This document shows positions 21,015-28,243 of a DNA stretch of 28,243 nt, one piece after another. This DNA comes from a virus, in IMG/VR virus record IMGVR_UViG_3300028553_000133, positions 1 to 28,243 of that record, one strand, 5' to 3'. Within the stretch, counting starts at the first letter, position 1. The number at the start of each line of letters is the position of its first letter. Made by a program: the position numbers and the translations under genes. The notes beneath the pieces are model-generated. The model saw only the letters and a program-made list of their open reading frames with translations. It searched no databases and was not told the DNA's origin.

Positions 21015-21022
21015 TATTTATA
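21015..21022 (-). promoter_or_regulatory. Late promoter (TATAAATA) of gp22
   Basis: An exact T4-type late -10 element on the minus strand, 40 nt before the gp22 start and 2 nt after the gp21 stop. The leader contains CGGAG about 8 nt before the ATG. Confidence 0.8.
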
Positions 21023-22402: not shown

Positions 22403-22410
22403 TATTTATA
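22403..22410 (-). promoter_or_regulatory. Late promoter (TATAAATA) before the gp21 cluster
   Basis: An exact T4-type late element on the minus strand. The gp20 stop codon (TAA, 22408-22406) is part of it. It would drive the 53-codon ORF, the beta-rich gene and gp21, with an mRNA start about 15 nt before the first ATG. Confidence 0.75.
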
Positions 22411-24730: not shown

Positions 24731-26914
24731 TTAAACTGTACCTACAACTGTCTCAAATGAGACTCCAGTTCTAGTTGCAACAAACGTCAGACCAATGAAG
24801 TTGATGCTTCTTGCTGGTTTTACAAAAATATCAGCAATAAATTCATTCCTGTCAATTACACTTGGAGTGTTGTTGGATTCATCACAAACCAATAAGAAGT
24901 CAGTAATTCCTCTTTTAACTTGAACATCTCTCAAGTATGGCTCAACAATATTAATAAAGTTTGCTCTTGTGGAGGCATCATTAAATTCAAATAGTTGTGA
25001 ATCTGCAGCACTCTTGATTGCCTGTTCAATTGTGATGAACAATCTCCTAACATTAATTCTATCAAATGCTGATTGATATGATAATGCAGTTTTATCTCCA
25101 AATAGAATAATTCCAGATCCTGGTGAAGAAATTATGGAATTAATTCTTTGTGAATAAAGTTGATCTCTGTCTTGTTGAGATGGATTGTATGCAAGTTTAA
25201 TTGCAAACTTAAGACTTCCTCTAGTCTTACCAGCAGGAGAATACCAAGGAAACTGATTAATATCAGTTCTTACACATAGTCCAGCAACATCTGCAGAACA
25301 AGGCATGTATATAAACTGTTGATTAAATCTATCATAAACATATTGATAACCACTATCAAATACTGTATAAGATGAAGATGATAGTGGACTAAAGAATGAC
25401 AAGACATTTTGCAATTGAGTTGTAGCAGATGATACATTTACAACTGCTGTCCTGTATGGGGAAATAAATGCAACACAATCCTTTCTGCTTTCTGCAATGC
25501 TAATAAGTTTATTTGCCTTAGCTTGCTCAATTTCTTTTCCTGCTGAGACACTTCCCTGCAAGAGATAACTGATTGTTACATCAACATCATTTGAAAATTT
25601 ATCATAAGCAGTTATAATATCAGTAAGATCTACATTAAATCCTCCTATATTATCTGTTGACCCAACACCAGTGCTATAATCTTTTCCACCTCTTAAAGTG
25701 TAAGATTTATTTCCTATAGAATTAAATGTAACTCCTTCTGCAGTAATTCCCCAGATTCCTGAAGTTTCAGAGGCAGGAGTAAATTCTGAACTAAATTTGA
25801 CAGAAACTGGATCAACTTCCCAATAAGCATCTGTTGCATCTCCAGGAGATTTTCCTGCATAAATGTATTGAGAATTTAATGCAATATAATCTTTGTAGTA
25901 AATTTTAGTTGATGGTGAAATAGTAGTATCTTGTGCTTTTGATAGATTGACAAATTTTTCAAGAATTGTTTGTGGAGTTCCACTGATATTATTTGACTTT
26001 TTACTATCAATAACTACAATATGCACTGCATCATTTTGACCATCTCTATCTAAAGCATAACCATTAGTTGTTGGTCTTGGAGCTATGCTTCTCCAAGATA
26101 AAGTGCTGGAATCTCCCCTAGCAATATCTAAAATATTTTGATTGTTGTACCAGTCAGATACAGACCCACCATTAATTAAAGATGTTGTTAATCCAGATGA
26201 ATGAACCACATTTAAGTAATTGGTGGTTGTACCAATCCCAAATGCATAAGTGCTATTTTCTTTGTAATCTTGAGTTGATTCAACACCACCTACATTTTTA
26301 GAAACAATTTTAACATAAAATTCAGAGGATCCAACACCAGTAATAATTCCCTTCAGGAAACCAGATGCTGCTGAAGTAGTTCCAACACCAGCAATAATCC
26401 CACTGATGGTTTGTGTTACTCCATATCCAACTGAAACATTAGTTGTATTTACTCCAGAGATAGTTTGATCTGCAAAGTTATCAATGATACAAACTTTAAG
26501 ATCTTCTGCCCAATATCCAGGATTCTTAGCTGCCCAGTACCAAGTACTTGCATTTAAATGTGATGCTTGATAATTATCAAAATTTTGAATAGATACTGAT
26601 GATGTTGATACACCAACTCCAGCATTAGAATTTTTTAATTGAGATCCAGAACATCTTACTACATTTAGACTTCCACCATAAGAGAGAAAGTTTGATGCAG
26701 AGTACCAATATTCATAGTGGTAATCATTTTTAGATGGAGTTCCAAAAGTATTCTTTAACTCATCTTCAGTTCTAATAGTTACAATTTGATTTACAGGACC
26801 TTTTGCAAAAGGAGCAGCAATTCCTGCTGCTAAAGATGTAGTATTTTGAATACCACCTCTAGTTAAATCTACCTCCCTTACATTAATACCTGGAGATGCT
26901 AAGCGTAACGCCAT
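24731..26914 (-). CDS. gp18: Tail sheath protein gp18
   Basis: Contractile sheath subunit that surrounds the gp19 tube. The start RLASPGINVREVDLTRGGIQ matches the usual opening of phage sheath proteins, and the C-terminal third holds the conserved part: GLCVRTDINQFPWYSPAGKT, then RGSLKFAIKLAYNPSQQDRD, FGDKTALSYQSAFDRINVRR and a final domain with RDVQVKRGITDFLLVCDESN. The middle (about 120-450) is variable, rich in Gly, Ser and Thr, and would lie on the outer surface. Length is 727 residues (T4: 659), the surplus being in this middle part. AGGAG lies 8 nt before the ATG and a TATAAATA late promoter 36 nt upstream. Confidence 0.97.
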   Translation of the reverse strand: MALRLASPGINVREVDLTRGGIQNTTSLAAGIAAPFAKGPVNQIVTIRTEDELKNTFGTPSKNDYHYEYWYSASNFLSYGGSLNVVRCSGSQLKNSNAGVGVSTSSVSIQNFDNYQASHLNASTWYWAAKNPGYWAEDLKVCIIDNFADQTISGVNTTNVSVGYGVTQTISGIIAGVGTTSAASGFLKGIITGVGSSEFYVKIVSKNVGGVESTQDYKENSTYAFGIGTTTNYLNVVHSSGLTTSLINGGSVSDWYNNQNILDIARGDSSTLSWRSIAPRPTTNGYALDRDGQNDAVHIVVIDSKKSNNISGTPQTILEKFVNLSKAQDTTISPSTKIYYKDYIALNSQYIYAGKSPGDATDAYWEVDPVSVKFSSEFTPASETSGIWGITAEGVTFNSIGNKSYTLRGGKDYSTGVGSTDNIGGFNVDLTDIITAYDKFSNDVDVTISYLLQGSVSAGKEIEQAKANKLISIAESRKDCVAFISPYRTAVVNVSSATTQLQNVLSFFSPLSSSSYTVFDSGYQYVYDRFNQQFIYMPCSADVAGLCVRTDINQFPWYSPAGKTRGSLKFAIKLAYNPSQQDRDQLYSQRINSIISSPGSGIILFGDKTALSYQSAFDRINVRRLFITIEQAIKSAADSQLFEFNDASTRANFINIVEPYLRDVQVKRGITDFLLVCDESNNTPSVIDRNEFIADIFVKPARSINFIGLTFVATRTGVSFETVVGTV

Positions 26915-26950: not shown

Positions 26951-26958
26951 TATTTATA
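26951..26958 (-). promoter_or_regulatory. Late promoter (TATAAATA) of gp18
   Basis: An exact T4-type late element on the minus strand, 36 nt before the gp18 ATG, in the 55-bp gap after the terminase gene. The leader carries GAGGAG before the start codon. Confidence 0.82.
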
Positions 26959-26969
26959 ATTTTACGGGT

Positions 26970-28136
26970 TTACCTATATTCCCACATGTATGATTTGTCC
27001 CCATATTCATCCAAACGCCAAACATCACCATCAGCATCAACTTCACCAATTGGTGCCTCACTTCCATCTACTATAAATCCAAAGGGAGACATGTCTTGTT
27101 CAATTTGATTTTTTTGTTCTTCATATAATCTTTTTCTAACATCTTGTTCCGTTAGTTCTTTAAAATAATCTTGAGAAACCAACCAAGCATAAATGACTAA
27201 GCACATTGCCAAGTCATCATTACAACCATCTTCTGCTTCAAATGAATTGTGTTTTTGAATAAAAGTAGTTAATTCACTAATAATTTCATAATCACTAAAA
27301 ATAAGCTTATCTTCTTCTATCATGGTTTTGAGATTTAAACATCCAATTTTTTTAACTGTCTTGGACATTTTCAATCCTAATTGAGTTTTCTTTCCTGAAA
27401 ATCCTTGACCAACTACTTGACCTGCTCTTCCTCTCATGGAACACATAAGGAGATTCTGATATTCAAGATCATATTGAAGTATAGATGCAACTTGATCGCC
27501 CACATCATTAACCTCACATAGAATAAATGCTTCATTATATGCTTTAGCTATATCATAAATGACATTTGGAAAAAGCATTGGTTTAATTTCATTATTTCTA
27601 TATTTTCCTACTATTTTGTGTGGAAAGGATGTAATGTCATATACAACAAATGCAGAATAATCACTACCAACTCCCCTAGCAACATCAACAGTAATTAAAT
27701 AATCTTTATCTGATTTGGGATCTTCATAAATATCCAAACCTTTACTTCTTTTTATTGGGTCATCAAATACTAATGATTTTAATTTACTTGGATGGATGAG
27801 AGTATCTACTGATCCTAAAAATTCACAGTTGTGTGATATTATATTATTTGAATAATATAAATTATCTTCTCCAACATCCAATAAATCATAAAGATATATT
27901 CCCTCCTCCACTATTTCATTATATACAACCCTCCTCCCTTGCAAAAAGTCATCTACTTTAATATTAGATGCTTTTATTTTTTCACTACCAAATGAATGAT
28001 TTTCTGAGCATTTTATTTCTGTTTCATCATCAAAAATTATCCAATGATAAAAAGGCTTATATACTTTTTGAATTCCAGAAAAAGTTTTAAATCCAGTAGG
28101 AGTTTTTATTAATGTGTTTTTATTGAGTTTAAACAT
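26970..28136 (-). CDS. gp17: Large terminase gp17, C-terminal piece fused to the C-half of a split intein
   Basis: Residues 1-103 are an intein C-part and 104-388 are the terminase nuclease domain. Intein marks: KTPTGFKTFSGIQKV (remaining block A region), SENH (44-47, block B), YLYDLLDV (block F) and SHN before C104 (block G and +1 Cys). The first Cys-containing 25 or so residues are missing, as in the atypically split AceL-TerL intein. The extein starts CEFLGSVDTLI and has the nuclease carboxylates D151 (VDVARG), E208 (CEVND) and D307/D308 (NDDLA); the D-to-E spacing of 57 equals that of T4 gp17. The ATPase half must be encoded upstream, beyond the window. Protein trans-splicing would rebuild gp17. 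The ATG has GGAG about 10 nt upstream. Confidence 0.93.
   Translation of the reverse strand: MFKLNKNTLIKTPTGFKTFSGIQKVYKPFYHWIIFDDETEIKCSENHSFGSEKIKASNIKVDDFLQGRRVVYNEIVEEGIYLYDLLDVGEDNLYYSNNIISHNCEFLGSVDTLIHPSKLKSLVFDDPIKRSKGLDIYEDPKSDKDYLITVDVARGVGSDYSAFVVYDITSFPHKIVGKYRNNEIKPMLFPNVIYDIAKAYNEAFILCEVNDVGDQVASILQYDLEYQNLLMCSMRGRAGQVVGQGFSGKKTQLGLKMSKTVKKIGCLNLKTMIEEDKLIFSDYEIISELTTFIQKHNSFEAEDGCNDDLAMCLVIYAWLVSQDYFKELTEQDVRKRLYEEQKNQIEQDMSPFGFIVDGSEAPIGEVDADGDVWRLDEYGDKSYMWEYR
27828..28136 (-). other. Split intein C-part (TerL intein, AceL-TerL type)
   Basis: This segment encodes the 103 intein residues, ending in His102-Asn103 before Cys104 of the extein. Asn103 would cyclise and His102 assist, as in other inteins. 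The opening MFKLNKN and phrases FSGIQKV, HWIIFDDETEIK, VYNEIVEEGI and NNIISHN closely follow the AceL-TerL C-part as I remember it. No homing endonuclease domain is inserted; the space between blocks B and F is only about 30 residues. Confidence 0.9.
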
Positions 28137-28243
28137 TTTTCCAACACTCCTTTAATATTATTCTTTTTACTCCTTGTGGAGTTAAATTATATTTACTAGC
28201 ATATTCTTTACAAAATGCCTGAATATAAGACATTTCTCTACCA
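28129..28243 (-). CDS. 3' end of an ORF between the terminase halves (cut by window edge)
   Basis: The frame is open from the window edge and ends at TAA 28129, overlapping the start of the terminase piece by 8 nt. The visible residues are GREMSYIQAFCKEYASKYN, then LTPQGVKRIILKECWKNV. The segment is helical and basic and resembles a small DNA-binding helix pair. An internal ATG (MSYIQ) exists, but open codons before it suggest a longer gene. In split-intein loci of phages, a free homing endonuclease gene often lies between the two halves, so this may be its C-terminus. That is inference from position; no catalytic motif is in view. Confidence 0.55.
   Translation of the reverse strand, partial: GREMSYIQAFCKEYASKYNLTPQGVKRIILKECWKNV

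What the first reader, a model, noticed from the sequence alone, without database searches (positions are those of the whole stretch)
26970..28136. Terminase large subunit broken by an atypically split intein
The terminase ORF begins with 103 intein residues ending SHN|C, followed by the gp17 nuclease domain with its catalytic D151, E208 and D307/D308. Almost all of the intein is on this piece and only the first Cys-bearing segment is missing, which is the rare short-N split known from AceL-TerL rather than the usual split between blocks B and F. DNA packaging in this phage would depend on protein trans-splicing. The residues needed for splicing on this side (block B His, His102, Asn103, Cys104) are all present.
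Basis: partly seen in the sequence, partly recalled or inferred. Interest (0 to 1): 0.92.

Follow-up and report, generated by a model that had tools for sequence, protein, structure and literature searches.

The report
Terminase rebuilt by a split intein
In this marine virus of bacteria the motor protein that packs DNA is encoded as two separate pieces that must be spliced together as proteins; this is a new, well-supported member of a known rare class of split inteins, and its relatives carry between the pieces a nuclease gene that appears to drive its spread and to regulate itself.

Summary
Confirmed. The minus-strand ORF 26970-28136 is 103 residues of intein C-part (block-B H47, H102, N103) joined at N103|C104 to the nuclease half of a T4-type terminase large subunit (D151, E208, D307/308 present). 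The intein part is 78% identical to CatC, the engineered consensus of the AceL-TerL/GOS-TerL inteins (PDB 6DSL). The window ends before the N half, but at least 141 viral contigs carry the same C part. In 70 of the 80 kept loci the N half is read directly: the terminase ATPase ends FE|CLSGDT...LYxRM-stop, a 29-residue intein N-part matching CatN. Eight long records (up to 188 kb) hold only the two halves. An independent contig is 99.4% identical, so it is no chimera. Between the halves lies a 189-aa GIY-YIG homing endonuclease gene, whose last 37 codons are in the window. Module DNA is 97-100% identical between phages whose exteins are 70-80% identical, so it moved recently. Splicing itself is inferred. 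New member of a known kind.

The parts
27828..28136 (-). Intein C-part (IntC), 103 aa, ATG start; block-B His47 (SENH), His102, Asn103
   Evidence: 78% identical to CatC of PDB 6DSL; invariant SHN in 79 of 79 relatives
27825..27827 (-). Cys+1 (C104), first C-extein residue and expected splice acceptor
   Evidence: intein-less terminase of Synechococcus phage S-B43 reads FKIEFECEFLGS at this point
26970..27827 (-). C-extein: nuclease half of the T4-type terminase large subunit (gp17), D151/E208/D307/D308, plus stop
28129..28242 (-). Last 37 codons and stop of the GIY-YIG homing endonuclease gene lying between the two terminase halves; its stop end overlaps the IntC ATG by 8 nt
   Evidence: 100% protein identity to six relatives that carry the complete 189-aa gene; Pfam PF01541 on the complete protein of L003
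28147..28152 (-). AAGGAG, likely Shine-Dalgarno of the IntC ORF, 10 nt before its ATG
   Evidence: sequence read
26951..26958 (-). TATAAATA, T4-type late promoter motif before the tail sheath gene that follows terL
   Evidence: 37 nt before the ATG at 26914

Best explanation
A T4-type marine phage carries its large terminase as two genes. The first, outside this contig, encodes the ATPase half followed by about 29 intein residues with Cys1. The second, in the window, encodes 103 intein residues followed by the nuclease half. After translation the two intein parts fold together and splice ...FKVEFE to CEFLGS..., restoring gp17 (inferred from conserved residues and from the published activity of close homologues). 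The split lies between intein blocks A and B because that is where a GIY-YIG homing endonuclease gene sits. The IntN-HEG-IntC unit spreads as a homing element into the uninterrupted terL site. From relatives, the endonuclease gene has its own T4-type late promoter abutted by a 19-bp copy of its presumed target, so it probably represses itself as I-TevI does (inferred, about 0.5-0.6 likely).
For: IntC matches CatC and L003 IntN matches CatN. In 70 of 80 kept loci the N half with Cys1 is present, with C1, L2, G4, T6, I10 invariant; IntC is 103 aa ending SHN in 79 of 79. Intein-less S-B43 terminase is contiguous exactly at FE|CEFLGS. Eight long records hold only the two halves. dN/dS medians: IntC 0.081, N-extein 0.078, C-extein 0.14, HEG 0.16. 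HEG: Pfam GIY-YIG E 2e-7, Y5, Y16, R26, R28, H30, E55, N70 invariant in 65 of 65, and 80 of 80 HEG loci lie before an IntC. Mobility: window versus L003 is 100% over the 107-bp HEG tail and 97.7% over IntC, but 70-79% over the C-extein. Operator mimic: 66 of 66 loci, in register with E|CEFLG, top-ranked 19-mer of about 16,000 in every locus, directly followed by TATAAATA; I-TevI precedent 15/20 (PMC2988022). Cultured Campylobacter phage CP39 has its terminase halves unlinked, 24 kb apart on opposite strands, with the same short-N layout at another site. Review PMC11766414 reports trans-splicing by AceL-TerL, GOS-TerL and Cat.
Against: The N half of the window's own phage was not seen, since the contig ends inside the HEG. 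No splicing assay was run. CatC is an engineered consensus, so its activity does not prove activity here. The operator and autorepression rest on sequence similarity only, lie outside the window, and were seen in relatives. Loci are phylogenetically related, so 66 of 66 is not 66 independent events.
Confidence: 0.93

Rival explanations
1. Decayed or assembly-broken intein: the ORF is a fragment of an ordinary contiguous intein gene, cut by a contig error or a stop codon.
For: The contig ends 107 bp upstream of the ORF, and a second contig of the same population also starts near there (L008).
Against: The start codon and the separate reading frames are kept in 79 relatives, including long contigs covering both sides. 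Low dN/dS in IntC.
Confidence: 0.02
2. The two halves work unspliced, as a two-subunit terminase, and the intein parts are passengers.
For: Genes-in-pieces enzymes that retain function exist (title of reference B46 in PMC3322345: ribonucleotide reductase).
Against: Splicing residues are invariant (C1, H47, H102, N103, C104) and IntC is under purifying selection as strong as the ATPase half. A non-splicing passenger should lose them.
Confidence: 0.03
3. RNA-level removal: the interval between the halves is an intron and terL is joined in the mRNA.
For: The terminase gene of phage ICP1 contains a spliced intron with a nearby HEG (PMC10448857).
Against: Each half has its own in-frame stop or start and intein motifs. 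HEG-deleted loci L009 and L022 leave only -8 and 8 nt between the ORFs and stay split, which leaves no room for an intron. Rfam was not run.
Confidence: 0.01
4. About the regulatory part only: the 19-bp terL-like sequence before the HEG is a fossil of HEG invasion, left when an endonuclease targeting the empty site entered the intein, and not a working operator.
For: It spans the uninterrupted junction E|CEFLG, not the intein border; the collaborative-homing model has a free-standing endonuclease pre-adapted to the insertion site entering the element (PMC2988022).
Against: Non-coding positions after the stop stay conserved across lineages whose HEGs are about 64% identical, and it is always joined to TATAAATA; it is lost or broken where the HEG is deleted.
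Confidence: 0.35

Closest known systems
AceL-TerL and GOS-TerL atypically split inteins; Cat consensus (PDB 6DSL)
   Same: Terminase large subunit host, short IntN (25-37 aa), about 104-aa IntC, similar local exteins, 78% identity of IntC to CatC and clear match of IntN to CatN (review PMC11766414).
   Different: A new natural sequence, with Cys1 and Cys+1. The primary GOS-TerL and Cat papers are not in the library, so whether their loci carry this HEG and operator could not be checked.
I-TevI of phage T4 (GIY-YIG endonuclease and transcriptional autorepressor)
   Same: GIY-YIG enzyme with its own late promoter and a homing-site mimic at the promoter (15/20 in I-TevI; 13-17 of 19 to the own junction here).
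   Different: Here the HEG sits between halves of a split-intein gene, not in a group I intron; binding, cleavage and repression are untested; no solved I-TevI chain was matched by sequence.
Fractured genes with split inteins and free-standing endonucleases (gp41-1, NrdJ-1, IMPDH-1 type; from memory of Dassa et al. 2009, not readable here)
   Same: Two half-genes with an endonuclease gene between them.
   Different: Those split between blocks B and F; here the split is between blocks A and B and the endonuclease is GIY-YIG.
Terminase inteins of cultured Vibrio phages VP-1, 1.244.A and K469
   Same: Corresponding insertion site (D/E|C before the nuclease domain) and same short-N split.
   Different: A GIY-YIG domain is fused in frame behind IntN on the N-half ORF and no operator mimic was seen.

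Membership tests
Atypically split TerL inteins (AceL-TerL/Cat type) | IntC of about 104 aa homologous to CatC, ending HN, with nucleophile at +1 | tested here: met
Atypically split TerL inteins (AceL-TerL/Cat type) | Short IntN with Cys/Ser1 at the end of the TerL ATPase half | tested here: met
   met in relatives only; the window's own N half lies beyond the contig
Atypically split TerL inteins (AceL-TerL/Cat type) | Trans-splicing activity | not testable with these tools
   needs co-expression and mass spectrometry
T4-type large terminase (gp17) | RNase H-like nuclease domain with D, E, D catalytic residues | tested here: met
GIY-YIG homing endonuclease (gene between the halves) | GIY-YIG domain with conserved Tyr, Tyr, Arg, Glu, Asn | tested here: met
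   on relatives; the window holds only the last 37 codons
GIY-YIG homing endonuclease (gene between the halves) | Cuts the uninterrupted site and promotes its own transfer | tested here: inconclusive
   recent transfer of the module is indicated by identity contrast; cleavage untested
I-TevI-type autorepressor | Homing-site mimic overlapping or abutting the endonuclease's late promoter | tested here: met
   in relatives; that this site is the homing site is itself inferred
I-TevI-type autorepressor | Binding to operator and repression without cleavage | not testable with these tools
   biochemistry needed

The most novel reading that the evidence does not exclude
The split point of this intein class is set by a homing endonuclease that occupies the gap between intein blocks A and B. 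The endonuclease has its own late promoter under an operator resembling its terL target, so one GIY-YIG protein both spreads the split intein and throttles the transcript that also carries the terminase C half. In some lineages the endonuclease is later lost and the phage is left with an obligate protein trans-splice.
Probability: 0.5. Interest if true: 0.65.

Novelty: new member of a known kind. Interest (0 to 1): 0.47.

Why it matters
It gives about seventy natural pairs of a rare, biotechnologically useful split-intein class. It offers an explanation for why the split is near the N end: the endonuclease gene sits there. The operator mimic makes a direct test possible of whether an endonuclease lodged in a split intein regulates itself and its host gene. 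It also indicates that an essential phage motor is rebuilt from two proteins in many marine phages.

Tried and rejected
AlphaFold2 of the HEG: mean pLDDT 52, not used, and no fold search made. phmmer of the HEG against PDB: only a chance hit. Exact scans with the window's right-end DNA found only contigs of other phages with the shared module, so the window's own N half was not recovered. An RNA hairpin hiding the HEG start, as in I-TevI, was folded in 12 loci: inconsistent, AU-rich structures, not claimed. The GOS-TerL, Cat and fractured-gene papers are not held. An intron reading was considered and set aside because HEG-deleted loci leave no room for one.

Full report
Observation. The minus-strand ORF 26970-28136 (388 aa) is as described. 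Residues 1-103 are intein, 104-388 the terminase nuclease half. The best solved match of the first part is CatC, the C-part of the engineered consensus atypical split intein (6DSL chain B, E 4e-51; 80 of 103 aligned positions identical). The second part matches the gp17 nuclease domain of T4-type phages (3c6a, 3ezk, 3cpe) and Pfam PF17289.

The missing half. The record ends at 28243 and contains no other terminase match. A scan of IMG/VR for the intein part gave 141 confirmed relatives, 80 kept. Where the upstream DNA is present (70 loci) the terminase ATPase half ends ...FKVEFE|CLSGDT...LYxRM-stop or a close variant; C1, L2, G4, T6 and I10 are invariant. The L003 N-part matches CatN, chain A of 6DSL (E 7e-6). 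In Synechococcus phage S-B43, without an intein, the protein reads straight through FKIEFECEFLGS, so the insertion site is exactly E|C. Eight related records of 40-188 kb hold the two halves and no intact copy. Contig L008 is 99.4% identical to the window over 5413 bp, which excludes a chimera inside the ORF.

What lies between. In 67 loci a complete ORF of 189-191 codons lies between the halves; all 65 of the 189-residue copies keep the GIY-YIG residues. Its stop overlaps the IntC ATG region by 8 nt; its last 37 codons are in the window at 28129-28242. It is deleted in L009, L022 and L035 and has a nonsense codon in L043, and these loci remain split. A separate scan for this protein found it before an IntC in 80 of 80 loci.

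Mobility. Window and L003 share 100% of the 107-bp endonuclease tail and 97.7% of IntC DNA but only 70% of the first 300 bp of the C-extein and 79% of the rest. Similar contrasts occur between a few other pairs. This is what recent homing into diverged phages predicts. IntC evolves under strong purifying selection (median dN/dS 0.081; N-extein 0.078, C-extein 0.14, endonuclease 0.16).

Operator-like element. Directly after the IntN stop, every locus that keeps the promoter motif (66 of 66) has a 19-mer such as GAATGTGAGTTTTTTGGAT, followed at once by TATAAATA and shortly afterwards the endonuclease ATG. The 19-mer aligns in one fixed register with the uninterrupted junction, codons E|C-E-F-L-G. 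It is 13-17 of 19 identical to the same phage's ligated junction, and 19 of 19 to another phage's junction in two lineages. Scored with a matrix from 35 distinct junctions, it is the best 19-mer of about 16,000 in each locus, the two true half-sites left out. T4 endonuclease I-TevI is repressed through such a mimic, 15 of 20 identical to its homing site and overlapping its late promoter (PMC2988022). Shown: the sequence, its register, its conservation beyond the coding part, and its loss or breakage where the endonuclease is deleted. Inferred: binding, repression, and that the endonuclease targets this site. A fossil of invasion remains possible.

Wider family. Homologous inteins occur in terminases of cultured phages (84 records). 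Vibrio phages VP-1, 1.244.A and K469 have the corresponding site and the same split, with a GIY-YIG domain fused behind IntN. E. coli phage kaaroe has a short-N split at another site (DE|C) with a TnsA-like nuclease domain fused behind IntN. Vibrio phage VmeM-32 and Nitratidesulfovibrio phage SRB7757 have contiguous inteins at that DE|C site. Campylobacter phage CP39 has the two halves at 68946-69662 (-) and 93501-94829 (+), with the N half ending IDE|CVAGDT...ELYNRIG-stop. An unlinked pair in a cultured phage is good evidence that such splits must be joined as proteins.

Mechanism and verdict. Shown: anatomy, conservation, absence of an intact copy in relatives, identity contrast indicating recent transfer. 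Inferred: association, splicing, packaging dependence, homing cleavage, autorepression. The window feature is a new member of the AceL-TerL/Cat class. The operator layout and the endonuclease-defined split point may be new; the primary papers of that class could not be read, so I do not claim priority.

Noticed in passing
L025:3509-5407 and L068:3519-5408: Terminase N half carries a second, contiguous intein of about 320 aa with LAGLIDADG-like motifs at the Walker A motif (QTGK|S...), besides the split intein; in L068 the intein seems to start with Ala instead of Ser.
   Followed up: partly
L035:4402-6684: A contiguous intein of about 400 aa with LAGLIDADG-like motifs interrupts the gene that encodes the portal protein (gp20) (IYR|CLIGDS...VVHN|SRAP).
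   Followed up: no
L096 (MH107028.1 93501-94829) and L171 (68946-69662): Campylobacter phage CP39 terminase halves are unlinked, 24 kb apart on opposite strands, each with its intein part at the DE|C site.
   Followed up: partly
L089 (HM246721.1): Campylobacter phage IBB_35 terminase region holds several intein pieces, one of them contiguous at Walker A, and separate endonuclease ORFs; the 2012 paper (PMC3322345) called it an intein plus an intron with a mobE-like gene, but the reading frames suggest further split inteins.
   Followed up: partly
window 26951-26958, 22403-22410, 21015-21022, minus strand: TATAAATA late-promoter-like motifs before structural genes; all five copies in the window are on the minus strand, though the total number is as expected by chance.
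   Followed up: no
L009:1351-1470: Endonuclease deleted: the IntN ORF runs into what looks like a relic of the endonuclease tail and overlaps a GTG start of IntC by 8 nt.
   Followed up: yes
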